22,557 nucleotides of DNA from a virus, in IMG/VR virus record IMGVR_UViG_3300035145_002977, positions 1 to 22,557 of that record; one strand, given 5' to 3'. Below, in pieces: positions 8,672-22,518 of the stretch. Position 1 is the stretch's first letter; every line of letters begins with the position of its first letter. The position numbers and the translations under genes are program-made. The notes beneath the pieces are model-generated. The model saw nothing but the letters and a program-made list of their open reading frames with translations. It was not told where the DNA came from and searched no databases.

Positions 8672-8930
8672 TTATTTTTTTGTTTTTTCCCAAGCATTCG
8701 CCGCCATGTTCAAAAAGAAGATTAGATCCGATATTTTAGCATTTGGGTTTTTTATACCTCTAGTGCTTAACATAGTAAAATCACTTAAAGTCATATCCCA
8801 AAATCCATCTGAGTCTGTGACTTTATTAAGGTCAACCGCTTTAGATGGGATATTTTTTAGCTGTTTTACCCTCAAGTCGGGCGATACGATTTTCAAGTTC
8901 TCTGATGACTTCTGAAGCTGATCTTCTCAT
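8672..8930 (-). pseudogene. SASEV-tagged small protein, frame broken at an A6 run
   Basis: The ATG at 8930 opens with the family tag M-R-R-S-A-S-E-V-I-R-E-L-E-N-R-I-A-R-L-E, then G-K-T-A-K-K-Y-P-I and a stop at 8841-8843. The next frame carries on without a break to 8672 (P-S-K-A-V-D-L-N-K ... A-W-E-K-T-K-K) and has no start signal of its own. Removing one A from the run in GCT-AAA-AAA-TAT would join the two into one 85-residue protein. So this is a frameshifted gene, a +1 recoding or slippage site, or a sequencing error. The leader upstream (GGAGAACTACTT before the ATG) is intact and matches the other tagged genes. The C-terminal part resembles nothing I recognise. Confidence 0.6.
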
Positions 8931-8994
8931 AAGTAGTTCTCCATTGGTTAAGGTTAAAGAGATCACTTATGAGAGATCATAAAGAAACTACAAA
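8931..8994 (-). promoter_or_regulatory. Shared leader of tagged genes, copy 1
   Basis: Read on the minus strand it runs from TTTGTAG past TTTATG-GATCT and GTGATCTCTTTAACC to CTTAACCAATGGAGAA. The same order of words is found upstream of 13099. It probably holds promoter and ribosome binding site. Confidence 0.45.
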
Positions 8995-9966
8995 TCAATC
9001 CTCGTCATCTTCCTCAAGAAGAGCGTAGTTCAACCTAAAATCCCTTGATGTGGTTGCGACTGCCTTGAAGTTGATCAGATCCACATCTTCATCACCATTC
9101 TTAAATTGGTAGTAAAATTCTAGTGTTCCTTCAACCTCAATCTGATTAGGGGCGATTACATCTCTGACTAAAATGTTTTGTAGGAGGTCTAGGCTTATCT
9201 CAACCCTTTCAACCTCAGAGTCGGGATTAAGTTTTTCACACTTAATGTCTTTCCCATCAATGGTGGCAACAAGATCCTCGATGTTTCGCTCATCAATGCC
9301 GTTTGTGATTGTAACATACTCGATCTCAATCTTGCCTTGAAGGGTAGGTATTCCACCACGACTCATTGAAACCACCTTTAGTTTTGTGTCAACTGAAGGT
9401 GATATTGCTTTTCCGTAGTGGTGTTCCACTTCTCCAGAGAAACATATTTCTACGGGATCTTGACTTGCAAGACGAACTCTTTGGCTTTGTTTGTATTCTT
9501 CTTTCTGTCGATTCACCAACCTTTTAAGAACACGATTAACAAGACCATTAACATCTTTCAGATTAGGTACAAAGGTTGGCTCTACCCCGATGTAAAATTG
9601 ACCTTGTGGGTTTGCCTCTTGAATAAAGATCAAGTCGGTGTGCTTAAAATCTTTTGTGAATTCTTCAGTTTCAAAGCTCAAAGCCAAACGAGGTGAAGGA
9701 CCTTTAGTGTCAATCTTAGAAGATACTTCATAGTAAATGCCTTTAAGAACTAAAGATCCATTTATCAGACCATCTCGATCAATGTCTAAGTCAAGAGTAT
9801 CAATAAGACGGACTCTCTTTAAATTTGAAATGATTTCTCTTGTGAGCTTCTTCAAGACTCTTACTTCTTTTTTACCAAAGAAAAAGTCCATCAACCCAGC
9901 ACTCTTTTCGAGTTGGGTGATTCTTGTCTCAAGGTTTCTAATAATCTCACTAGCTGATTTTCTCAT
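8995..9966 (-). CDS. SASEV-tagged protein, 323 aa, unknown
   Basis: The longest of five proteins that share the N-terminal segment (here M-R-K-S-A-S-E-I-I-R-N-L-E-T-R-I-T-Q-L-E-K, residues 1-21), predicted to be an amphipathic helix. A hydrophobic-aromatic G-L-M-D-F-F-F-G follows, then a long helix (about 35-55), and mostly mixed alpha/beta sequence ending in a very acidic tail (L-L-E-E-D-D-E-D). No catalytic motif is seen. AATGGGGAAATC precedes the ATG. It is upstream of the broken tagged gene on the same strand, and divergent from 10035. A packaged or compartment-targeted protein is possible, judged only from the shared tag. Confidence 0.8.
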   Translation of the reverse strand: MRKSASEIIRNLETRITQLEKSAGLMDFFFGKKEVRVLKKLTREIISNLKRVRLIDTLDLDIDRDGLINGSLVLKGIYYEVSSKIDTKGPSPRLALSFETEEFTKDFKHTDLIFIQEANPQGQFYIGVEPTFVPNLKDVNGLVNRVLKRLVNRQKEEYKQSQRVRLASQDPVEICFSGEVEHHYGKAISPSVDTKLKVVSMSRGGIPTLQGKIEIEYVTITNGIDERNIEDLVATIDGKDIKCEKLNPDSEVERVEISLDLLQNILVRDVIAPNQIEVEGTLEFYYQFKNGDEDVDLINFKAVATTSRDFRLNYALLEEDDED

Positions 9967-10034
9967 GTTGATTTCCCCATTGCTTAAGAGTTAAATAAGA
10001 TCAGAGTATAAACAAACTATAAAAAGAGATTCAC
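9967..10034. promoter_or_regulatory. Divergent promoter region
   Basis: The region lies between the tagged gene (minus) and the gene at 10035 (plus). Minus reading shows TTTTTATAG, GTTTATAC, GATCTTATTTAA and CTTAAGCAATGGGGAAA, a diverged copy of the tagged-gene leader. Plus reading shows ACTATAAAAAGAGA just before the ATG. Confidence 0.35.
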
Positions 10035-10295
10035 ATGAGCACAAAAGCTACAATCACACATGGTGATGATTTCCATGTGTACCAAGAGATGTTTGAGGGA
10101 GATAATGTCTACCTCCAAATAGATAAGCATGGTGGGTTCGTTCAGATCATGGGCGATAGGATTACAGTAAGCCTACCTCCAGATCTTTTAGATCAGATCG
10201 CAAGGGGTTGGCTAGAGAACCGAGAAAAGTTCGATACAGAGCCAAATACAGAGCTTAATCTTGAGGGGTTAAAAAAGCTACGGTCAGAGTCGTAA
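10035..10295 (+). CDS. Hypothetical protein, 86 aa
   Basis: A small soluble protein with an N-terminal half of beta character (D-D-F-H-V-Y-Q-E-M-F-E-G-D-N-V-Y-L-Q-I) and a C-terminal helix (L-P-P-D-L-L-D-Q-I-A-R-G-W-L). It looks like a small phage regulatory or adaptor protein, but no family is assigned. The ATG follows AAAAAGAGATTCAC. Its TAA stop (10293-10295) is the TAA of the next class I promoter block. Confidence 0.8.
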   Translation: MSTKATITHGDDFHVYQEMFEGDNVYLQIDKHGGFVQIMGDRITVSLPPDLLDQIARGWLENREKFDTEPNTELNLEGLKKLRSES

Positions 10296-10308
10296 CCCCT
10301 TATCTATA
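10292..10308 (+). promoter_or_regulatory. Class I promoter block
   Basis: A perfect GTAACCCCTTATCTATA, 33 bases before the ATG at 10342, containing the stop codon of the preceding gene. Confidence 0.6.
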
Positions 10309-10341
10309 GCCTAGTGTATCAACAACCACTAGGAGTCAAAT

Positions 10342-10425
10342 ATGAGCTTTGTAATCATGTCCGTCATCTTCGCTGTTGTGTTCGCACCAGCGTTTGATCT
10401 ACACCTCTACTCGAACAAGGTGTAA
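10342..10425 (+). CDS. Micro-protein, 27 aa, single membrane helix
   Basis: The ATG at 10342 follows AGGAGTCAAAT and is preceded by its own promoter block. The first 18 residues are hydrophobic (S-F-V-I-M-S-V-I-F-A-V-V-F-A-P-A-F), followed by D-L-H-L-Y-S-N-K-V. This predicts a small membrane peptide. The stop TAA (10423-10425) again falls inside the next promoter block. A full promoter, ribosome binding site and stop-block arrangement for 27 codons argues that it is expressed. Confidence 0.65.
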   Translation: MSFVIMSVIFAVVFAPAFDLHLYSNKV

Positions 10426-10438
10426 CCCCTTATCTATA
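10422..10438 (+). promoter_or_regulatory. Class I promoter block
   Basis: A perfect GTAACCCCTTATCTATA, 24 bases before the ATG at 10463, overlapping the stop of the 27-residue gene. Confidence 0.6.
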
Positions 10439-10462
10439 TCACTCTTGAAAGGAGAACCTAAT

Positions 10463-10702
10463 ATGTCAGATCACATCAGCCCAATCGTTTGGTCTAAGCC
10501 TGTAGGCAAGGCCGCTGACCCTAACGCATCTCGTATCGCTCGTATCAAGGCATACCGAGATGAGCATACCACCGTCCTTGCGAATGGTGTCCGTCCGATC
10601 CCTAAGATCGAGACTATCCTTAACATCCTCAACTGCCACGATATGTTTGAGGGTAAGTTTGAAGCTCGCCTCATTGTTGAGGTAAATGACTTCCGAGTGT
10701 AA
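10463..10702 (+). CDS. Hypothetical basic protein, 79 aa
   Basis: The start at 10463 is set by AAAGGAGAACCTAAT; the open frame extends upstream into the previous gene and was trimmed. The protein has a basic middle helix (A-S-R-I-A-R-I-K-A-Y-R-D-E-H) and a C-terminal part with K-I-E-T-I-L-N-I-L. No family recognised. The TAA stop (10700-10702) is part of the next promoter block, as in the two genes before it. Confidence 0.8.
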   Translation: MSDHISPIVWSKPVGKAADPNASRIARIKAYRDEHTTVLANGVRPIPKIETILNILNCHDMFEGKFEARLIVEVNDFRV

Positions 10703-10715
10703 CCCCTTATCTATC
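10699..10715 (+). promoter_or_regulatory. Class I promoter block (last base differs)
   Basis: GTAACCCCTTATCTATC, 35 bases before the ATG at 10751, containing the upstream stop codon. Confidence 0.55.
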
Positions 10716-10750
10716 ATCAAGCATCAACCCACTCCCAATGGAGAACAGAT

Positions 10751-11098
10751 ATGAGCTACAACGCTAACAACCACCCCGACATCCACCACTACATCGACCT
10801 CCATAAAGAGGTCTATGGCACAAAGCGTGGGTGTACCTTCCATGTCTCTAAAGAGGCTTTTGAGGCATCTTACGCTTACCTCGTTGAGTATGTGTCTTGC
10901 CCTGTGTACCAAGCAGAGCGAGAGGCCGAGTGGAAGGCACAGATGGAGGAGTGGGAGCGAGAGGAGCGTTTGGAAGTTCAGTACCGAGCCGAGCGTGAAG
11001 CTCGTGAAGCTCGTGAGCAAGCAGAGGCTCTTGAGAATGAGCTTTGGCTTCAATGGCAAGATGAGGAAGATCGTCTTATGGGAGCAAGGGTACGCTAA
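10751..11098 (+). CDS. Glu/Arg-rich coiled-coil protein, 115 aa
   Basis: The N-terminal 50 residues are His/Tyr-rich (H-P-D-I-H-H-Y-I-D-L-H). The rest is a charged helix dominated by Glu and Arg (E-R-E-A-E-W-K-A-Q-M-E-E-W), a probable coiled coil from about 55 to 98. The last 17 residues (W-L-Q-W-Q-D-E-E-D-R-L-M-G-A-R-V-R) align without gaps to the end of the protein at 3624-3998. GGAGAACAGAT precedes the ATG. It is followed after 12 bases by the next gene in the same operon. Function unknown. Confidence 0.85.
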   Translation: MSYNANNHPDIHHYIDLHKEVYGTKRGCTFHVSKEAFEASYAYLVEYVSCPVYQAEREAEWKAQMEEWEREERLEVQYRAEREAREAREQAEALENELWLQWQDEEDRLMGARVR

Positions 11099-11110
11099 AG
11101 GAGAACAGAT

Positions 11111-11506
11111 ATGCCATACGACTTAAACTACAACCACTTCAACTATGTTCGGTCTTTTGAGCGTGAGATCAAGTCTCACCTTGAGAACCCCGACCTCCCC
11201 TTCCTTGCTCGGCAGTTTGCCATGATGGGCTGTGGGAGAAACTTCCTCGATGATGGGACTCTCGTCTGGCCCCATGAGAGCCTTGATCAGCAGTACAACG
11301 AGATGGTTCATCATCTCCTCAAAGAGTATAAGCTCTTAGACACGCTTCGAGGCTTCTTCGAGTATGACTGTCGGTTGTCCGAGGACAATGACTGTAAGGT
11401 GCTTAGTAAGGGGGCTGATGAGGACATCGTGGCTTTCCTTAAGGATGACCCCGACCCACGCTACTTCACACTTCCCGAAGAAAAAAACTTGCAAGGTAGC
11501 CTTTAG
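11111..11506 (+). CDS. Hypothetical protein, 131 aa
   Basis: An acidic soluble protein with no recognised family. It is helical (F-E-R-E-I-K-S-H-L, E-M-V-H-H-L-L-K-E-Y), with Cys at three places and an acidic D-D-P-D-P near the end. Start supported by AAAGGAGAACAGAT. It is the second gene of the operon from the promoter block at 10699. It ends 32 bases before tRNA-Glu. Confidence 0.8.
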   Translation: MPYDLNYNHFNYVRSFEREIKSHLENPDLPFLARQFAMMGCGRNFLDDGTLVWPHESLDQQYNEMVHHLLKEYKLLDTLRGFFEYDCRLSEDNDCKVLSKGADEDIVAFLKDDPDPRYFTLPEEKNLQGSL

Positions 11507-11507
11507 A

Positions 11508-11517
11508 TCATATAAAA
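11508..11517 (+). promoter_or_regulatory. Possible class II promoter word (ATCATATAAA)
   Basis: (G)ATCATATAA or a close form occurs here before tRNA-Glu, at 12528 before tRNA-Lys, at 13164 before the SUMF1-like gene, at 15704 before the lipoprotein gene, and as GTCATATAAT at 19634 before the secreted protein gene. It may be a -10-type element distinct from the 17-bp block. Confidence 0.35.
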
Positions 11518-11538
11518 GACTCACCCCACCACACTTAC

Positions 11539-11610
11539 GGTCCATTCGTCTAGTGGTTAGGACTCCGGCCTTTCACGCCGGCAACACGGGTTCAAATCCC
11601 GTATGGATCA
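11539..11610 (+). tRNA. tRNA-Glu(TTC)
   Basis: Acceptor GGTCCAT/ATGGATC, anticodon arm CCGGC-CTTTCAC-GCCGG (anticodon TTC), T arm ACGGG-TTCAAAT-CCCGT, discriminator A. CCA is not encoded. Flanking CCCACC (11525-11530) and GGTGGG (11614-11619) could pair outside the acceptor stem. Confidence 0.92.
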
Positions 11611-11621
11611 TTAGGTGGGTT

Positions 11622-11666
11622 AAGCCAAGCAGATAGGGTAGATTGAATACCTAGACTGACTGGCTT
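11622..11666 (+). ncRNA. Structured spacer RNA after tRNA-Glu
   Basis: AAGCCA/TGGCTT (11622-11627, 11661-11666) encloses TAGGGTA/TACCTA (11634-11640, 11648-11653, one bulged G). It repeats the bracketed-spacer pattern of the main RNA cluster. Confidence 0.35.
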
Positions 11667-11706
11667 CTAATGCGTATTGCGTACCTACACCTTATGTGAG
11701 TCTATT

Positions 11707-11922
11707 ATGAAAAAAGTTAAGTTCACCAAGAAAGACGGCAAGAAATCATACATCGAGGTCGATCAGTCTTTGCTCAAGAATAAGATCATTTCCCTGTATG
11801 CAGATAACAAGCCCTATTCATTGCAGAGCTTCCTAAGCAATCCCATGTCCTTCTCTGTAGAGCGTGTCAACTATCAGAGGTTCAACTATTCGGACGGGAG
11901 TTTTGAATATAAGGAGATGTGA
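11707..11922 (+). CDS. Hypothetical protein, 71 aa
   Basis: A Lys-rich N-terminus (K-K-V-K-F-T-K-K-D-G-K-K) is followed by a Ser/Tyr/Phe-rich body. The ATG at 11707 was chosen because it gives the natural start of the basic segment, but no good ribosome binding site lies in front of it, so the start is uncertain. The stop TGA shares one base with the ATG of the next gene. It is the first gene of a tight four-gene operon ending at 12513. Confidence 0.7.
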   Translation: MKKVKFTKKDGKKSYIEVDQSLLKNKIISLYADNKPYSLQSFLSNPMSFSVERVNYQRFNYSDGSFEYKEM

Positions 11923-12140
11923 TGTTTAAGGACAAGTGGGTTGAAAAGAGGGATAAAGCTCGTGCGTATAAGGTCTTGTCTTTGAACCACCTCACCGACA
12001 AGGTGGCAGACCCTCAAGATAAAGCTAAACTTAAAGAGCTGATCTCGGTTTATTTAGATGCCCATGACTTTACGACTAGGGTAGGTTTAGAGATCGCTAA
12101 GTATGAAGATAAATACTCTGTTAAAAAGGAGAAAGAATGA
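11922..12140 (+). CDS. Hypothetical charged protein, 72 aa
   Basis: The ATG at 11922 follows AAGGAG (11911-11916) and overlaps the previous stop by one base. It is a helical Lys/Asp/Glu-rich protein (D-K-W-V-E-K-R-D-K-A-R-A-Y-K, then D-P-Q-D-K-A-K-L-K-E-L), with no recognised family. Its stop overlaps the next gene's ATG by 4 bases (ATGA), indicating coupled translation. Confidence 0.78.
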   Translation: MFKDKWVEKRDKARAYKVLSLNHLTDKVADPQDKAKLKELISVYLDAHDFTTRVGLEIAKYEDKYSVKKEKE

Positions 12141-12274
12141 TGTTTGGAGATAGAACGATTTACTGTCCTCGATGTAAGCGAGAGACTTGGGATGGGGATA
12201 CTTGTCCAGCGACTAATAAGACTAAGAAGTGCCTAGACGGTACTCTTGAAAAGACCCAAAAGCCAAAAGCATGA
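12137..12274 (+). CDS. Small zinc-ribbon-like protein, 45 aa
   Basis: The ATG at 12137 follows AAAGGAG. Four cysteines are arranged as C-P-R-C (10, 13), C23 and C32, matching a small four-Cys zinc-binding fold, though the second pair is spaced unusually wide. The C-terminus is Lys-rich. It overlaps both neighbours by 4 bases, so it is inside a coupled operon. It may bind nucleic acid or act as a small regulator; family unknown. Confidence 0.72.
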   Translation: MMFGDRTIYCPRCKRETWDGDTCPATNKTKKCLDGTLEKTQKPKA

Positions 12275-12513
12275 GGTGGTGGTATTTTCAGAGGGTGGGT
12301 GGGAAGCTGAAACTTGCACCCTTAGATTTCTTTACCCATCGCCCTTCTGACGCTACCCCATCGGATAACCCTATGACCCCCTGGTATGACCTCTATAATC
12401 ACATTGATGAGGTTCATGTTCATGTGCAAGCAGAAACTTATGAAATAGCCTTAGCCTTAGCCTACATCATGGTTAAGGAAAAAGACTTGAAAGTCTCTCC
12501 GAGCGAGGTATAA
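12271..12513 (+). CDS. Hypothetical protein, 80 aa
   Basis: The ATG overlaps the previous stop by 4 bases, with no own ribosome binding site, so translation is probably by coupling. The sequence opens with an aromatic, basic stretch (R-W-W-Y-F-Q-R-V-G-G-K-L). The middle is His-rich (D-E-V-H-V-H-V-Q) and the C-terminal part is helical. No family recognised. It ends 31 bases before tRNA-Lys. Confidence 0.75.
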   Translation: MRWWYFQRVGGKLKLAPLDFFTHRPSDATPSDNPMTPWYDLYNHIDEVHVHVQAETYEIALALAYIMVKEKDLKVSPSEV

Positions 12514-12544
12514 AGATACTCCCGATCATATAAGAGTGGTATGA

Positions 12545-12617
12545 GGGCTGTTAGCTCAATCGGTAGAGCACCGGACTTTTAATCCGTTGGTTCTGGGTTC
12601 GAGTCCCAGACGGCCCA
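12545..12617 (+). tRNA. tRNA-Lys(TTT)
   Basis: Acceptor GGGCTGT/ACGGCCC, D arm GCTC...GAGC, anticodon arm with loop CTTTTAA between CGGA and TCCG (anticodon TTT), T arm CTGGG-TTCGAGT-CCCAG, discriminator A. CCA is not encoded. GATCATATAAG lies 8 bases upstream. Confidence 0.92.
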
Positions 12618-12634
12618 TTTCTTAGATCGTAGGT

Positions 12635-13099
12635 TCAATCGAGGTCGTCTTCGTCCTCGTCCCAACCTTCTAGGTTATAAGTAAAGACAATCCTGTTTTT
12701 TTCTAGTCTAAGGTTAGACCCTGTAAATTTTTTCATCTTGAAACCATCTCCGTGAATATCTCTTAGGATAGCTCTAAAATCTTTACGCTTTTCTACTTCC
12801 TCTACCAGTAGAGGAAGCATCCCTTCCTTTTCATCAAGAACCAAGGATAAGTAATGTGGATCAGGATTAGCTATCTGGTTAGCTTTCAAGTTAATGATTA
12901 CTTTACCCACTTCTTTTATTAAAAAATTAAATTCCTTAACTGTCTTGATGGTTTCAAATTCAATGTCAGAACGAGGCCAGTTGTTTTTTGGATAAAGTAA
13001 GTCCAGATCCCCCTTGAGGGTCCCTAGTGAAGATTGTCTTTCAAGACGAGCGACCCTAATCTCAAGGCTTCTGATTACTTCACTTGCAGATCTTCTCAT
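12635..13099 (-). CDS. SASEV-tagged protein, 154 aa, unknown
   Basis: It begins M-R-R-S-A-S-E-V-I-R-S-L-E-I-R-V-A-R-L-E-R, the same segment as in four other proteins of the window. The rest is unrelated to them: a helical charged body with K-D-F-R-A-I-L-R-D-I, then an acidic end (W-D-E-D-E-D-D-L-D) that recalls the acidic end of the 323-residue tagged protein. GGAGAATGAACC precedes the ATG. It ends 18 bases past tRNA-Lys on the opposite strand and is divergent from the SUMF1-like gene. Confidence 0.82.
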   Translation of the reverse strand: MRRSASEVIRSLEIRVARLERQSSLGTLKGDLDLLYPKNNWPRSDIEFETIKTVKEFNFLIKEVGKVIINLKANQIANPDPHYLSLVLDEKEGMLPLLVEEVEKRKDFRAILRDIHGDGFKMKKFTGSNLRLEKNRIVFTYNLEGWDEDEDDLD

Positions 13100-13198
13100 G
13101 GTTCATTCTCCATCGGTTAAGGTTTAAAGAGATCACTTATTGGTGGGTATAAAAGGTCTACAAATCATATAAGTATAGTATCACAAACCTATTCTTGC
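13100..13198. promoter_or_regulatory. Divergent promoter region with shared leader, copy 2
   Basis: Minus reading has TTTGTAGACC, TTTTATACCCACC, GTGATCTCTTTAAACC and CTTAACCGATGGAGAA before the tagged gene. This is nearly the same as at 8931-8994, and TTTATACCCACC also matches the region at 15673-15749. Plus reading has AATCATATAAG at 13164, about 40 bases before the SUMF1-like start. Confidence 0.5.
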
Positions 13199-13213
13199 AT
13201 GATTGGAGATGCA

Positions 13214-14266
13214 GTGGAAAAGATCACTAAATACAGCTTTGAACAAGAGCTACATGGTACGACTGTTCGTGTGACCCTACCCGACTACAAGATCAAAGAG
13301 ATCAGCGAGTCGGAAGGCAAAGACTTTAACCAGTTTTTAAAAGACACCAACGCTAAGGTTGAGGGGTACATCTATGACGACCCATTCCCTAAAGGTGCAG
13401 AACCTCTTACTGTTCACCCCCTGTTAGCTGATACAGAGGGTACGAGCTTCAGTTATGGTAAATGGAATGAGAACCATGTTTACAACATGACTCTTATTCC
13501 TGCTGGTGAGTTTGAAGCACAGAAATCACCTAATCAGTCTAACTGTGAGCGTGATAACCCACATAAGTTTTTGGACTCCATGCCAGATGAACCAGTGAAG
13601 GTGAAGATCACTCGACCCTTTTGGATTGGCACACACATGGTGACTGGAAACTTAATCTCCGAGTATGTGAGGAAGTATCCTCAAGGTAAGCCCTCAAGAG
13701 ATTGGGGAGGCACTTATGGGCATGAGGGGTTTGTGAAGATCTGTAATGACTTGTCTGATGCCTATGGGCTTGAGAGATGTTATTACGGAGAAAAGGACGA
13801 TGTAGACATCAGCAAGAATGGATTTCGTCTACCTACCGAAGCCGAGTGGTACTATGCCGCTAAAGCGAATGAGGATTACATCTACGCAGGTTCTGACCAT
13901 TTAAGCTCTGTTGCTCATTGGAGGGGCAACCACACGCTCAAGTGGTACAACTACAACATTGTAGGTAGACTTAAACCGAACGCTTGGGGTTTGTATGACA
14001 TGAGTGGTAATGGGGTCGAACTTACACACGGATCATTTGGACGACTCAAGGGCAAATACTCATCGGACAAAGAAATCCCATTCCCTCAAGCTGACGATGA
14101 TGGATATGTGGTTGATCCTGTTCATGGTCAAGATAGGTTTATTGTAGGAAAAGGGGGTAGCCATGAGCCTTATGAAAATCAATGGTCTGCTAACACCTGT
14201 CGCATTGACTTTAGAAATACATATGCGTTTCACCCTATGTTTAGACTAGTGAGGAACGCACTATGA
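13214..14266 (+). CDS. Formylglycine-generating-enzyme-like (SUMF1/FGE-sulfatase fold) protein
   Basis: The C-terminal 260 residues show the C-type-lectin-like SUMF1 fold landmarks: M-T-L-I-P-A-G-E-F (97-105, counted from the ATG at 13199), F-W-I-G-T-H-M-V-T-G (141-150), F-R-L-P-T-E-A-E-W (209-217), P-N-A-W-G-L-Y-D-M-S-G-N (260-271), V-G-K-G-G-S (316-321) and the ending F-R-L-V-R-N-A-L. The usual G-N-V-W-E-W is G-N-G-V-E-L. Only one Cys (334) lies where true FGEs carry a copper-binding pair, so oxidation of sulfatase Cys is unlikely and a binding role is preferred. Residues 1-90 are an extra domain of unknown type. Start: GTG at 13214 has GGAG 5 bases upstream; the ATG at 13199 has none. It overlaps the next gene by 4 bases. 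Confidence 0.85.
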   Translation: MEKITKYSFEQELHGTTVRVTLPDYKIKEISESEGKDFNQFLKDTNAKVEGYIYDDPFPKGAEPLTVHPLLADTEGTSFSYGKWNENHVYNMTLIPAGEFEAQKSPNQSNCERDNPHKFLDSMPDEPVKVKITRPFWIGTHMVTGNLISEYVRKYPQGKPSRDWGGTYGHEGFVKICNDLSDAYGLERCYYGEKDDVDISKNGFRLPTEAEWYYAAKANEDYIYAGSDHLSSVAHWRGNHTLKWYNYNIVGRLKPNAWGLYDMSGNGVELTHGSFGRLKGKYSSDKEIPFPQADDDGYVVDPVHGQDRFIVGKGGSHEPYENQWSANTCRIDFRNTYAFHPMFRLVRNAL

Positions 14267-14787
14267 GCGATAAATCTGACCTTAAAATGCTGGTCAAGGT
14301 GGTGAACACCTTACAAGAGGAAGCTGACAATCGTTTCATCAAGGGCATGATTACTCGGATACAGGGATTGATTGGTACAATGGAGCAAGACCTCGATCTA
14401 AAGGTTGAGACTACTGACACCTATGCTCGTAAGGATTACTTTAAAGATTATGTAGTCAACAAGTATAGTCCTATCATCAACCAAGAGGTCTATGCCTATG
14501 AGTTTGTGCGAGGGAAGATTCGTAAGAAGTTTCCAATCGTACTGAAAGAAATCACAAGGGAGATCATTAGGGTGAGTCGTGACGGCTACCTTGCTTCCGA
14601 GCTACCCGAACACAGCTCTTATTGGAGCGACTGCCATTGTGTAGCTGGAGAAGATCCTTATGAGAACCTTGATAACTGTCGTGCTCACTATTGGCGTGAG
14701 TACCGTACAGATAAAGACCCTGTAGAGTGGTGGGCTAAAGAGCCATTCTTAGATCGTAAAATTCGAGTTTGGAAAAAAGACCTATAA
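14263..14787 (+). CDS. Hypothetical protein, 174 aa, coupled to SUMF1-like gene
   Basis: It starts inside the end of the SUMF1-like gene (ATGA overlap), so the two are probably made together. It is helical and charged, with a central basic segment (R-G-K-I-R-K-K-F) and a C-terminal portion rich in Trp, Cys and acidic residues (Y-W-S-D-C-H-C-V-A-G-E-D-P-Y, P-V-E-W-W-A-K-E-P-F). C-H-C plus a later Cys could bind metal, which is inference. No family recognised. Confidence 0.82.
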   Translation: MSDKSDLKMLVKVVNTLQEEADNRFIKGMITRIQGLIGTMEQDLDLKVETTDTYARKDYFKDYVVNKYSPIINQEVYAYEFVRGKIRKKFPIVLKEITREIIRVSRDGYLASELPEHSSYWSDCHCVAGEDPYENLDNCRAHYWREYRTDKDPVEWWAKEPFLDRKIRVWKKDL

Positions 14788-14810
14788 CCTATGTCATAAG
14801 GAGATTAAAT

Positions 14811-14972
14811 ATGACACTACAACTACTAATAACTTTCGCTATCTGCTTCATGTCGGGAGCGATTTTCTTTTCAGACCACAAACTATCTCGTTCAACTTGG
14901 GCTTGGTATGTGGTAGCATTGACTTGTTCACTACCAGCCTTCTCTAAGATCCTTCAACTAACACAAGGGTGA
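14811..14972 (+). CDS. Small two-helix membrane protein, 53 aa
   Basis: The ATG at 14811 follows AAGGAGATTAAAT; the frame is open upstream but lacks a start signal there. There are two hydrophobic stretches, about residues 3-20 (L-Q-L-L-I-T-F-A-I-C-F-M-S-G-A-I-F-F) and 30-45, joined by S-D-H-K-L-S-R-S-T. This resembles small phage membrane proteins of holin-like size, but nothing in the context points to lysis. The stop is followed after 4 bases by the next gene. Confidence 0.72.
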   Translation: MTLQLLITFAICFMSGAIFFSDHKLSRSTWAWYVVALTCSLPAFSKILQLTQG

Positions 14973-14976
14973 TGAT

Positions 14977-15156
14977 ATGAATGAAGTGAATCTGTACGCT
15001 ATTTTGTCGGACAAAGGTGAGGTGGTTAAGACCTCACATGGCTTGTACTACTTTACGAGGTCAAAGGCTCGTGAAGCTCGCAAAGAGGTTGAGGGTAAGG
15101 CTCGCATTGTGAAGCGTTCTTATAACTCGACTTCGACATGGACTACTGCTAAATAA
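14977..15156 (+). CDS. Small basic protein, 59 aa
   Basis: The frame from the ATG at 14977 gives a 59-residue protein with Y-A-I-L-S-D-K-G-E-V-V, then a basic helix (F-T-R-S-K-A-R-E-A-R-K-E-V), then K-A-R-I-V-K-R-S-Y. The beta-beta-helix-beta pattern looks like a tiny compact fold. A weak AAGGGTGATGAT site precedes it, overlapping the previous stop. It ends 9 bases before tRNA-Leu. No family recognised. Confidence 0.7.
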   Translation: MNEVNLYAILSDKGEVVKTSHGLYYFTRSKAREARKEVEGKARIVKRSYNSTSTWTTAK

Positions 15157-15165
15157 GTCGTAGTT

Positions 15166-15247
15166 GCCTAGATGGTGGAATTGGTATACACAGGAGACTT
15201 AAAATCTCCCGACTTCGGTCTTGTGGGTTCGAGTCCCACTCTAGGCA
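15166..15247 (+). tRNA. tRNA-Leu(TAA)
   Basis: A class II tRNA: acceptor GCCTAGA/TCTAGGC, anticodon arm GGAGA-CTTAAAA-TCTCC (anticodon TAA), variable arm CGACTTCGGTCTT, T arm GTGGG-TTCGAGT-CCCAC, discriminator A. CCA is not encoded. Confidence 0.92.
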
Positions 15248-15252
15248 TTTAA

Positions 15253-15326
15253 GGGCCTTTAGCTCAGTTGGTTAGAGCACCCGGCTCATAACCGGGCGGT
15301 CCTGGGTTCAAGCCCCAGAGGGCCCA
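15253..15326 (+). tRNA. tRNA-Met(CAT)
   Basis: Acceptor GGGCCTT/AGGGCCC, D arm GCTC...GAGC, anticodon arm CCCGG-CTCATAA-CCGGG (anticodon CAT), T arm CTGGG-TTCAAGC-CCCAG, discriminator A. Paired position 1-72 indicates an elongator tRNA. A lysidine-modified Ile tRNA reading ATA has the same anticodon and cannot be excluded. CCA is not encoded. Confidence 0.9.
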
Positions 15327-15327
15327 C

Positions 15328-15672
15328 TCACATCTTTAATCTTTTCATAAGAGCTTTAAGAGATCGACTGTCAGCAGAAACATCTTCGATAGTGCTACGA
15401 TTTCTACTGTCTATCTTTATGATGCCCCAATAAAGATTTTGAACATTAGCGAGTATATAGGTGTCACCAAGTTTTTGAGCTTTATCTTCGACTGTGATCC
15501 ACTCTGCGTCTAGCTCATCGTCCTCGTCTAACTCGTCCTCAAATTCTTCTTCAAGACGATCAATAAGTTCAAGACGGACTTGATAATCTATCTCATCCCT
15601 AGATGCTTTTCTCTCAAGGCGAGCGATTCTGACCTCAAGATTTCTGATAACTTCGCTTGCTGATCTTCTCAT
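15328..15672 (-). CDS. SASEV-tagged protein, 114 aa, unknown
   Basis: It begins M-R-R-S-A-S-E-V-I-R-N-L-E-V-R-I-A-R-L-E-R-K-A-S. A second helix and a strongly acidic patch follow (E-E-E-F-E-D-E-L-D-E-D-D-E-L-D, about 45-60), then a short mixed segment with N-L-Y-W-G-I-I-K-I and a basic end (M-K-R-L-K-M). Outside the tag it is unrelated to the other tagged proteins. GGAGAGCAGAT lies just upstream of the ATG. It ends 2 bases past tRNA-Met on the other strand, and is divergent from the lipoprotein gene. Confidence 0.82.
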   Translation of the reverse strand: MRRSASEVIRNLEVRIARLERKASRDEIDYQVRLELIDRLEEEFEDELDEDDELDAEWITVEDKAQKLGDTYILANVQNLYWGIIKIDSRNRSTIEDVSADSRSLKALMKRLKM

Positions 15673-15749
15673 ATCTGCTCTCCATTCAAGGCTAAGGTTA
15701 GATCATATAAAGGTGGGTATAAAGAAACTACAACATGAAAGGTGATTGT
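15673..15749. promoter_or_regulatory. Divergent promoter region with shared leader, copy 3
   Basis: Minus reading contains GTAGTTTCTTTATACCCACC, then ATGATCTAACCTTAGCC and AATGGAGAG before the tagged gene. Plus reading contains GATCATATAAAG and GTATAAAGAAACTAC before the lipoprotein gene. Confidence 0.5.
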
Positions 15750-16487
15750 ATGAGGGTCTTATTTTTTTCTGTTCTACTTATGGCCTGTGGCGAGATTGAG
15801 GAGAACGAACCTCCTGTCATAGAGGGGGATAGGTACTTTACAGCTCCCTTCTGTTTGGACTCCGATGGGTACTACCCACCCGCAGATCTCGTTAGCGGAC
15901 AGGGCTACGGTTGTGAACCCACTCGTATTGAGCTTGTTAGCCCATGTAAAGGGGATGAGATCTATACATTCACCACGACACCAGACACCCCATATTTGAA
16001 CCAGTTTGTCTATTGTGAATATGACGCACAAGGTAGACCTACTAGGGAAGTAGGTCTTGGTTTCTCAGCGGCGTATTCGGGATTTGGTCAATGGAGCACC
16101 TATCTTTCTTCCTATAATGATGAGAGGGAAAGACAACGCCCATCATTCAAGGATTACCTTGATTATCGTTGGGATTATGAGTGCGTGTCTCAATGCTATA
16201 CAGATGACCTTTCTAGGCAAGATTACCGAAGTTGTATTGCAGATTGGCAAGAGGACGATTTGCCCTGGTCTTTAGATCGTATTGATGGTTGTGGTGTGGG
16301 TGTTGTTTACTACCTTTATGACTATGATTGGTATGATGACAAGGTGGTTAGATACCTAAGAAACTATCATGTCGGAGAGACAGTGGTTGATGATATGGGT
16401 AATGTCGTCTTAGAGTATGGGGCTATTAACTATGACCAACCTTATGGTTCTGGGATTAACCTACCTGTTGCATTTTACAAGGAGTAA
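15750..16487 (+). CDS. Predicted lipoprotein, 245 aa
   Basis: The ATG at 15750 follows AAAGGTGATTGT and begins a short signal peptide ending in L-L-M-A-C (Cys13), a good lipobox, so the product should be lipid-anchored in the envelope. The ATG at 15735 is in frame but lacks a ribosome binding site. The mature part is Tyr/Asp-rich with about ten more cysteines, suggesting disulfides outside the cytoplasm. It includes Y-C-E-Y-D-A-Q-G-R-P-T-R-E, reminiscent of the Y-D-x-x-G-R repeats found in bacterial surface and RHS-type proteins. A phage lipoprotein commonly blocks superinfection, but that is not shown here. It could also be a gene picked up from the host. Confidence 0.8.
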   Translation: MRVLFFSVLLMACGEIEENEPPVIEGDRYFTAPFCLDSDGYYPPADLVSGQGYGCEPTRIELVSPCKGDEIYTFTTTPDTPYLNQFVYCEYDAQGRPTREVGLGFSAAYSGFGQWSTYLSSYNDERERQRPSFKDYLDYRWDYECVSQCYTDDLSRQDYRSCIADWQEDDLPWSLDRIDGCGVGVVYYLYDYDWYDDKVVRYLRNYHVGETVVDDMGNVVLEYGAINYDQPYGSGINLPVAFYKE

Positions 16488-20765: not shown

Positions 20766-21221
20766 TTACTTACGGTTGCAAGGACCGCTTCCACCACCAG
20801 GCTTGGGGCAGATTTTTCTTTGGATCGTGGGTGAGTCCATGAAGTTCTCACGATACTTTTTGTTGTACTTAGCTCTTTCGGGAGAACCAGGCTTGCCCGA
20901 ATTTGCTTTCCCATACTCATGGTGGAGTCGGTAGCAAGTCACTCCGTCACCTGGCTTGCCAAGACCTTCAAGGTTATCTTCGGTGTAGCAGTCAGCTTGG
21001 TTCTTAGGAGCAGGGGGGCTGTTGTAATCTTTTTGATTCCCACCAGCACCATCCCAAGGACGACCTGCCATGAGTTCATCAGCCATGACCATGCCCGCAT
21101 CAATGTCTGCTTGTAGTTCTGCCAAGAATGGGTCTGCATAGCGATTTGAGGATGCTTGCCTTTCAAGGCGAGCCACACGAGCTTCAAGCTCACGAATAAC
21201 TTCTGATGCTAGTCTTTTCAT
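20766..21221 (-). CDS. SASEV-tagged protein, 151 aa, Gly/Pro/Cys-rich body
   Basis: The fifth tagged protein: M-K-R-L-A-S-E-V-I-R-E-L-E-A-R-V-A-R-L-E-R-Q-A-S. The body differs from the others: a helical M-V-M-A-D-E-L-M-A-G segment, then a Gly/Pro/Asn/Lys-rich low-complexity region with C-Y-T, C-Y-R-L-H-H-E-Y-G-K and a C-P-K-P-G-G-G-S-G-P-C end; four Cys in all. AAAGGAGATTGCT precedes the ATG. The 54 bases upstream carry TTTATTTATAG. Role unknown; the tag is the only link to the other four. Confidence 0.82.
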   Translation of the reverse strand: MKRLASEVIRELEARVARLERQASSNRYADPFLAELQADIDAGMVMADELMAGRPWDGAGGNQKDYNSPPAPKNQADCYTEDNLEGLGKPGDGVTCYRLHHEYGKANSGKPGSPERAKYNKKYRENFMDSPTIQRKICPKPGGGSGPCNRK

Positions 21222-21275
21222 AGCAATCTCCTTTGTGTGAATGTCAACACCATAAGACCAACTATAAATAAACTA

Positions 21276-21536
21276 TTAAAGATCTTCTTTAGCCATGTAA
21301 GTCAAAGACTTCATAGATCTTATCTCATCGACAAAGGTGAGAGCAGGTACTCTTGATGTGCGATTAAAGTATTCTCTCTTGAGGTCTTTGAAGGAGTGGT
21401 GCTTTTCAAAGACGAAGATTACTTTGCGACCCTCAAGCTCTGTTTTTAATAGCTCCATACCTGTGGTCTTTAAGTAAGCCGCAAAGTATAGATCAGAAGT
21501 CTTGTATAGAGGTTCTGGCTGTATGTCGGTATCCAT
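21276..21536 (-). CDS. DUF5659-like protein, 86 aa
   Basis: The core Y-K-T-S-D-L-Y-F-A-A-Y-L-K-T-T-G, then a strand V-I-F-V-F-E, then F-K-D-L-K-R-E-Y-F-N, matches my memory of the DUF5659 small-protein family (strands plus helices, role unknown, seen in phages and bacteria). The assignment is from recollection of the pattern only. The ribosome binding site AAAGG lies at the foot of a long hairpin (21551-21588), so translation may be controlled by it. It is second in a minus-strand run with 21591-21812. Confidence 0.8.
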   Translation of the reverse strand: MDTDIQPEPLYKTSDLYFAAYLKTTGMELLKTELEGRKVIFVFEKHHSFKDLKREYFNRTSRVPALTFVDEIRSMKSLTYMAKEDL

Positions 21537-21840: not shown

Positions 21841-22518
21841 TTATTGTGCTACGCCAGCACCGTCATATACTACCACATAAGGATCAAGAGTAACATTATT
21901 AACTACTCGACTGCTCTTGAGTCCGAGAAGGTCACCCTGTGCAAGAGAAATCCAGAAGCTAGAGTCCTCTTCAACGATAGGGTTGAAGAAAGCACTAAAG
22001 CTCGATGCTTGATCTGCAACAGAGAGCCACTGAGGAGCATTGTTAATATCCTCAAGGTCATAACCTGCTGGTACTGTAAAGGTCGCACCACCAAGAATCT
22101 GGAGGATGTTATTTACAGTAGCTGTTGAAGCACCAAGACCAATGCCTGTACCAGCAAGACCTGGAAGTAGTGCAATGATCCCATTGATGTCGAGAACTTC
22201 AAGATCACCACCTGTACGCATCTCAGAAATCAAAGCCTCTGCGATAAGGACAGACTCTGCTGGTGTGATGTTTGCACCTAAAGCACCTTGGTCAAAAGTG
22301 ACCAAACAATAAGCGGCAAGACCACTTACAGTGCGAGCAACTACAGTACCATCAAGTACAGGTAGGGTAGGTGTCTCTACAACACGAAGGTAGCGAGGAC
22401 CTTGTGGTGCTGGGTCTACAACAGGGTTAGCTTGTGATCTGTTAGGCCACATATCTTTAACGATGAGTTGACCATTTGAAATAGCTGTATCACGAATACA
22501 AATTACTGGACTAGCCAT
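21841..22518 (-). CDS. Probable virion structural protein, 225 aa
   Basis: An Ala/Gly/Thr/Val-rich protein almost without Lys and with only two Cys, with beta-type repeats (A-T-V-N-N-I-L-Q-I-L-G-G-A-T-F-T-V-P-A-G-Y) and no enzymatic motif. This composition, similar to the sheath gene and unlike the charged small genes around it, suggests a capsid, tail or decoration protein; the exact role is not assigned. AAGGAGATTAACTC precedes the ATG. It lies 12 bases after the end of another minus-strand frame, so it is probably part of a structural operon entering from the right. Confidence 0.75.
   Translation of the reverse strand: MASPVICIRDTAISNGQLIVKDMWPNRSQANPVVDPAPQGPRYLRVVETPTLPVLDGTVVARTVSGLAAYCLVTFDQGALGANITPAESVLIAEALISEMRTGGDLEVLDINGIIALLPGLAGTGIGLGASTATVNNILQILGGATFTVPAGYDLEDINNAPQWLSVADQASSFSAFFNPIVEEDSSFWISLAQGDLLGLKSSRVVNNVTLDPYVVVYDGAGVAQ

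What the first reader, a model, noticed from the sequence alone, without database searches (positions are those of the whole stretch)
8931..15749. Tag genes also share their leader DNA
Upstream of 8930, 13099 and 15672 (and more loosely 9966) the same words occur in the same order: TTTGTAG, TTTATACCCACC, GTGATCTCTTTAA, CTTAACC, ATGGAGA, then the start. Promoter, leader and tag thus look like one duplicated cassette attached to different bodies, a way to build new cargo genes by recombination.
Basis: seen in the sequence. Interest (0 to 1): 0.55.

Follow-up and report, generated by a model that had tools for sequence, protein, structure and literature searches.

The report
Shared gene-start cassette in giant phage
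In a family of very large bacterial viruses, dozens of otherwise unrelated genes begin with the same short stretch of DNA, and comparing related viruses suggests that this shared beginning is where genes are cut and rejoined so that different gene bodies end up behind it.

Summary
The window is a 22.6-kb piece of an uncultured giant tailed phage. The "leader" splits in two. TTTGTAG..TTTATA is a general promoter (TAGTTTNTTTAT), also found before 41 of 431 untagged G001 ORFs. GTGATCTCTTTAA-CTTAACC is tag-associated (TTAACCCTTAACC: 8 of 10 sites precede tag genes). Similarity among tag genes stops at the tag's end, and their synonymous codons agree far beyond chance.

Relatives support recombination there. 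Conserved flanks carry different bodies (17 of 21 tag ORFs lack the body in some relative, against 52 of 262 others). One tandem pair carries a clear conversion tract over leader and tag start. Tag remnants sit at junctions inside fused genes. Three window stretches holding four tag genes are absent from G001. Arrangements recur identically in separate records.

So leader plus tag behaves as a recombination anchor, like terminal reassortment of secreted effectors or T-even internal proteins. That the tag packages cargo into virions is plausible but untested.

The parts
8841..8930 (-). tag ORF, 29 aa, tag then early stop; body continues in another frame (8672-8896); broken gene
   Evidence: body frame is 57% identical to intact tag gene L069 3327
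8931..8996 (-). promoter (TAGTTTCTTTAT, 8990-8979) and leader of 8930
8995..9966 (-). tag gene, 323 aa (body family 40)
9967..10025 (-). promoter (10019-10008) and diverged leader of 9966, next to divergent gene 10035
8676..10031 (.). stretch absent from G001 (13 bp there), between tRNA-Tyr and gene 10035; this slot carries other tag bodies in G008/G028/G030 and G010/G029 and is empty in G001/G016/G012
12635..13099 (-). tag gene, 154 aa (body family 92)
13100..13165 (-). leader with all five words; promoter version TAGACCTTTTAT (3 mismatches to TAGTTTNTTTAT)
12620..14262 (.). stretch replaced by about 350 bp in G001; in G012 and G010/G029 gene 13199 follows tRNA-Lys with no tag gene between
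15328..15672 (-). tag gene, 114 aa (body family 93)
15673..15733 (-). leader and promoter (15730-15719) of 15672
15329..15701 (.). stretch absent from G001 (about 24 bp there); G001 keeps a decayed version of the promoter next to it
20766..21221 (-). tag gene, 151 aa, orthologous in G001, G004, G008, G010, G012, G016, G030 (family 1)
21222..21281 (-). promoter (21275-21264) and unrelated short leader of 21221

Best explanation
A block of about 130 nt (5' leader, ribosome-binding site and first ~21 codons) recurs at 27 genes of G001 and at tag genes throughout this giant-phage clade, and acts as the homology at which genes recombine. Homologous exchange inside this block, most likely by the phage's own RecA-family recombinase, (i) swaps one body for another at a fixed genomic slot, (ii) lets a body reappear at another place, (iii) converts leader and tag start between copies within a genome, and (iv) sometimes leaves fused genes with tag remnants at the seam. 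Each gene so made keeps expression from the phage's general (probably late) promoter and the N-terminal tag. Shown by sequence comparison: i to iv as patterns. Inferred: the recombinase, the late timing, and that the tag is a targeting signal (most likely into the virion, as in T-even internal proteins), so that body exchange renews a set of delivered proteins.
For: Sharp similarity edges near -70 and +70. Leader more alike among tag genes than among untagged genes with the same promoter (0.65 vs 0.54; pairs >=0.7: 26% vs 1.2%). Identical-codon fraction 0.565 vs 0.312 +- 0.010 expected. Four-way site patterns G001/G019: -250..-73, 104 ortholog-type and 0 paralog-type; -48..+20, 0 and 13; +60..+75, 11 and 0; none of the third kind. 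56 pairs of tag genes with conserved flank but different body, 26 distinct family pairs. In 24 representative pairs the fitted change of identity lies between -91 and +51 in 21. G004 22903/G010 22780: 0.97 upstream, 0.96 from the stop codon on, bodies different. Control: body missing beside a conserved flank in 17 of 21 tag ORFs, 8 of 35 untagged promoter ORFs, 44 of 227 others (Fisher p 1.9e-8). Remnants: G001 191916 has 22 nt of its own tag end at residue 130 before the old body; G004 46255 and G010 37497 share tag and first body, then GRIARLEKQA, then different second bodies. RecA-family gene in G001, E 2.6e-42. Compared arrangements recur 100% identically in other records.
Against: Some orthologs keep leader, tag and body together: G004 101040/G010 13912 at 0.99/0.99/0.98; family 1 is kept in every relative that covers that stretch. 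Bodies hardly occur untagged: 310 of 326 body hits are tagged and the other 16 are near-tags, broken copies or fragments, so capture of a wholly new, untagged body was not seen. 30 of the 56 conserved-flank pairs repeat a family pair, mostly the same virus in several records. Some 'different' bodies may be far-diverged alleles (C-ends LNWRHL and LKWRHRR in G008 39824/G010 6409). In 'body absent' includes plain loss. Leader conservation may partly reflect selection on translation. No prohead protease was found with PF03420 or PF04586 in G001. Polarity (gain or loss) at the window's slots is not settled.
Confidence: 0.72

Rival explanations
1. The leader words are ordinary expression parts: a late promoter, a 5' untranslated stretch and a ribosome-binding site, kept alike by selection because the genes are co-regulated; no cassette.
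For: The promoter precedes 41 of 431 untagged ORFs, and untagged promoter genes often pair the DNA just after the promoter with their own ribosome-binding site (own 14.96 vs permuted 11.31 +- 0.41, 0 of 5000 as high).
Against: Leaders of untagged promoter genes are no more alike than shuffled ones (0.54 vs 0.547). The hairpin test is not met by tag genes (13.8 vs 13.4, p 0.19). Co-regulation does not predict synonymous-codon sharing in the tag or in-genome conversion tracts.
Confidence: 0.15
2. The leader and tag are alike through old duplication and constraint alone; bodies then diverged very fast, without recombination.
For: Tag residues M1, A5, L12, R15 and E20 are invariant in 87 aligned proteins, so constraint is strong; some body pairs are distantly alike.
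Against: Bodies of orthologs are 0.86-1.00 alike while the tag between them is 0.71-0.90 in several pairs; flanks of 0.97-0.99 meet wholly different bodies. In G001 the first 69 nt of tag ORFs are less conserved than the body (median difference -0.083, n=5) while untagged ORFs show +0.013 (n=190; p 0.0018).
Confidence: 0.08
3. Metagenome assemblers joined unrelated genes at the repeated leader/tag.
For: All records are uncultured assemblies, and leader/tag is a dispersed repeat.
Against: 11 of 11 rechecked unit pairs are 100% identical in another record. Within the window the longest exact match between units is 17 nt, short for an assembler to join on. In some pairs flanks agree on both sides of replaced bodies.
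Confidence: 0.05
4. Whole tag genes are carried by a mobile element that inserts at tRNA 3' ends.
For: Three window stretches absent from G001 start 1-3 nt after a tRNA gene.
Against: In G001 the tRNAs all lie within 173-180 kb while the tag genes are spread over the genome; no attachment repeats were seen at these edges by eye.
Confidence: 0.04

Closest known systems
T-even phage internal protein (ip) genes with capsid targeting sequence (CTS)
   Same: Many different proteins sharing only a short N-terminal sequence; passages read in PMC3012670 call them a highly diverse set of defence proteins with only a conserved CTS, and PMC12373910 says related phages encode at least 10 and that T4 has three in two loci.
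   Different: Here 27 copies in one genome at scattered slots and 94 body groups in the sampled records. Likeness to a T4 CTS was not tested; packaging untested; no T4-type protease hit.
Terminal reassortment of type III effectors (Stavrinides et al. 2006; seen only as a reference in PMC6460904, otherwise recalled)
   Same: N-terminal signal with upstream DNA joined to different bodies; chimeric families (PMC6460904 passages).
   Different: In a phage, with in-genome conversion and internal tag remnants; delivery not shown.
Rhs C-terminal displacement (PMC2935791, listing with start of abstract only)
   Same: Conserved upstream part with exchanged downstream parts (that old ends are left behind is recalled).
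   Different: The conserved part is only ~21 codons plus leader, and is multi-copy within one genome.

Membership tests
T-even-type capsid-targeted internal proteins | Short shared N-terminal sequence on unrelated bodies | tested here: met
T-even-type capsid-targeted internal proteins | Signal removed by a prohead protease of the phage | tested here: inconclusive
   No PF03420 or PF04586 hit in G001; other protease types not searched, cleavage not testable
T-even-type capsid-targeted internal proteins | Protein found inside the virion and injected | not testable with these tools
   needs virion proteomics
Terminal reassortment | Same 5' region and N-terminus joined to different bodies with the junction in or at the end of the signal | tested here: met
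Terminal reassortment | Reassorted N-terminus acts as a delivery signal | not testable with these tools
   inferred only
Ordinary late promoter parts | Same words before many untagged genes | tested here: inconclusive
   Met for the promoter (41 of 431 untagged ORFs) and the ribosome-binding site; not met for the leader half (2 of 10 TTAACCCTTAACC sites are not before tag genes)

The most novel reading that the evidence does not exclude
A phage 'plug-in' system: a multi-copy leader-plus-tag block serves at once as expression start, virion-delivery signal and recombination handle, so that a giant phage keeps some 27 delivered proteins whose bodies are reshuffled among slots and relatives faster than the rest of the genome.
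Probability: 0.4. Interest if true: 0.78.

Novelty: new variant of a known kind. Interest (0 to 1): 0.62.

Why it matters
It gives a measured case, in a phage, of genes being remade by recombination at a shared gene start, with a conversion tract, swapped slots and fused remnants all visible. If the tag is a virion signal, it names dozens of likely injected proteins per genome, most without a known family, and makes their turnover testable.

Tried and rejected
The leader as a conserved RNA hairpin in tag genes: rejected for tag genes, though the same test found hairpins at untagged promoter genes. Tag in named phages: no hit in the phage collection. Tag in bacterial genomes: 0 stretches for the exact degenerate pattern. 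Known body functions: of 87 representatives, 8 Pfam families (E<=0.01), each in one member, among them Cupin_8/JmjC and WGR; 16 PHROGs, nearly all of unknown function. Recombinase: RecA family found, Rad52 family not. Structure of the family-1 protein: low confidence (mean pLDDT 49.6), residues 2-25 a helix at 74-80; no fold search was made. Papers: two searches for a shared N-terminus or gene conversion of this kind in phages gave nothing like it in their listings; Repoila 1994 was not held.

Rows dropped: A1 holds 87 of 89 representatives (two short ones left out by me). A2 holds 37 of 41 (three crossed piece borders, one left out for length). The 94 body groups include truncated copies that cannot be grouped, among them window 8930 (29 aa), G021 6308 (24 aa), G003 115667 (31 aa) and L009 111 (contig end). 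The swap pairs that rest on L009 111 are artefacts of this kind, and G005 9373/G021 6308 compares a gene with a broken one. The 24 pairs were picked by me from the 56: one per family pair, leaving out L009 111 and two pairs with G004 18468, and adding one repeat (G004 19067/G010 19008). One search left out G016, G017 and G024 as the same virus as G001. ORF calls are from my own simple caller, not a trained gene finder.
Full report
What the window is. The window is a complete virus record of 22,557 bases with a tail sheath gene (PHROG 2839). Its sheath is distantly like those of an uncultured 485-kb phage (39.6%), Tunturiibacter phage Tunturi_5 and Bacillus phage G. A tag pattern scan of viral contigs gave 88 stretches, many in one 375,691-bp record (G001) whose sheath is 94% identical in its best segment. 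G001 was read whole in pieces. Matching ends suggest it is nearly complete.

The observation. Word by word, only 13099 has all five; 8930 has four, 15672 two, 9966 none exactly; 21221 is a fifth tag gene with the promoter only. Six-frame search found 27 tag genes in G001 (one more weak match). Among 32 tag genes of G001 and the window, identity is background (about 0.25) above -80, rises at the promoter, is high through the tag, and falls to background at +70.

Two halves of the leader. TAGTTTNTTTAT has 76 sites in G001 against 9-10 in shuffles. It lies 20-75 nt before the start of 41 of 431 untagged ORFs and is present (<=1 mismatch) at 19 of 27 tag genes. The untagged proteins scanned (37 of the 41) include matches to baseplate, tail lysozyme, endolysin, spanin, ribonucleotide reductase and homing endonuclease families, so this is a general promoter, probably late. 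The rest of the leader is tag-linked: TTAACCCTTAACC has 10 sites, 8 before tag genes and one before an untagged ORF at 194762. From promoter to start codon, tag leaders are 0.65 alike on average, untagged ones 0.54, shuffled ones 0.547. ATGGAGA holds the ribosome-binding site.

DNA kinship of the tag. At codons with the same amino acid, 56.5% of codon pairs are identical, against 31.2 +- 1.0% from genome usage and 37% in bodies (25 of 27 G001 tag genes used). So the tags share DNA ancestry and not only protein constraint.

Gene presence. Against G001 the window has no match at 8676-10031, 12620-14262 and 15329-15701 in collinear position, and these stretches hold four of the five tag genes. 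Each left edge lies 1-3 nt after a tRNA. At the third, G001 retains a decayed promoter stretch without the gene. In relatives the slot beside gene 10035 holds family 20 (G008, G028, G030), family 38 (G010, G029), family 40 plus the broken 8930 (window), or nothing (G001, G016, G012).

Recombination. From 47 records and pieces (1.90 Mb), 180 tag genes (130 distinct by the first 300 nt) fall into 94 body groups. In homologous pairs with bodies >=0.85 alike, 62 are identical and 30 differ. Among the latter, G001 145303/G019 20357 (upstream 0.97, leader 0.81, tag 0.77, body 0.96) and G001 145958/G019 21013 (0.98, 0.85, 0.86, 0.94) show leader and tag replaced between conserved sides. Four-way site patterns give 104 ortholog-type sites before -73, 13 paralog-type from -48 to +20, 11 ortholog-type from +60, and no other pattern: a conversion tract. 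Counter-example: G004 101040/G010 13912 keeps everything. The nearest leader+tag relative with another body lies in the same virus for 28.5% of 130 units against 7.8% permuted, 0 of 5000 as high; recent duplication could add to this.

Swapped bodies. 56 pairs have a conserved flank and different bodies (26 distinct family pairs), 27 have the same body with no flank match, 107 have both conserved. In 24 chosen pairs the fitted change point lies between -91 and +51 in 21; the other three fits lie further up (-199, -176, -194), and for the last of these, G008/G010, the alignment shows the change only after the tag. In 9 of the 24 downstream homology of 60 nt or more was found, cleanest in G004 22903/G010 22780, where it starts at the stop codon; the two window comparisons among them are short (62 and 66 nt). 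Control: 17 of 21 tag ORFs, 8 of 35 promoter ORFs and 44 of 227 other ORFs lack the body beside a conserved flank in some other record (p 1.9e-8; against promoter ORFs 2.9e-5). Absence there includes plain loss as well as replacement.

Seams. G001 191916 carries 22 nt of its own tag end at residue 130, directly before the body that G010 and G012 have soon after their tag. G004 46255 and G010 37497 share tag and first body (99.3% over 419 nt), then GRIARLEKQA, then different second bodies; G004 has a further full tag inside. These are what exchange at the tag's end would leave.

Artefact check. 11 of 11 rechecked unit pairs are 100% identical in another record; some of these samples may be related. 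The longest exact match between window units is 17 nt.

Function. The tag is predicted as a helix (residues 2-25, pLDDT 74-80 in a poor model), and M1, A5, L12, R15 and E20 are invariant in 87 proteins. Passages read in PMC3012670 and PMC12373910 describe T-even internal proteins as diverse bodies behind a shared packaging sequence, some of which counter host restriction; passages of PMC6460904 and the listing of PMC2935791 point to like processes in type III effectors and Rhs. That the tag here targets the virion is inference; SPN3US-type cleavage is at A-X-E (PMC5694885 passage), and the tag contains ASE, which alone proves nothing.

Noticed in passing
G001 (L137-L155), e.g. before ORFs 67345, 11335, 256381, 249403 in G001 coordinates: Untagged genes with the promoter often have DNA right after it that is complementary to their own ribosome-binding site, as if the mRNA began with a hairpin hiding it (14 of 41 with a strong stem; own vs swapped 14.96 vs 11.31).
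   Followed up: partly
window 4130, 4522, 10296, 10426, 10703 (+) and 19566, 4068 (-); G001 55 sites: A second promoter-like repeat, GTAACCCCTTATCTATA; 46 of 55 G001 sites of its core lie within 120 nt before an ORF start.
   Followed up: partly
window 8672-8930: Tag gene broken by a frame change after the tag; an intact relative exists at L069 3327.
   Followed up: partly
window 13199-14266: Gene with a PHROG match labelled 'kinase' (E 2e-11), directly after tRNA-Lys in G010, G012 and G029, missing in G001.
   Followed up: partly
window 15812-15905: ARAGORN tRNA-Gly call lying inside ORF 15735-16487, probably false.
   Followed up: no
G001 209761 (-), 341201 (+), 211531 (-), 67345 (+): Proteins whose N-termini look like shortened tags (for example MSILRNLEMRVARLERQAATKS), perhaps tag relics.
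   Followed up: no
window 21841-22518; G001 186163-188314: Gene with tandem diverged copies (29-33% identical to it) in G001.
   Followed up: no
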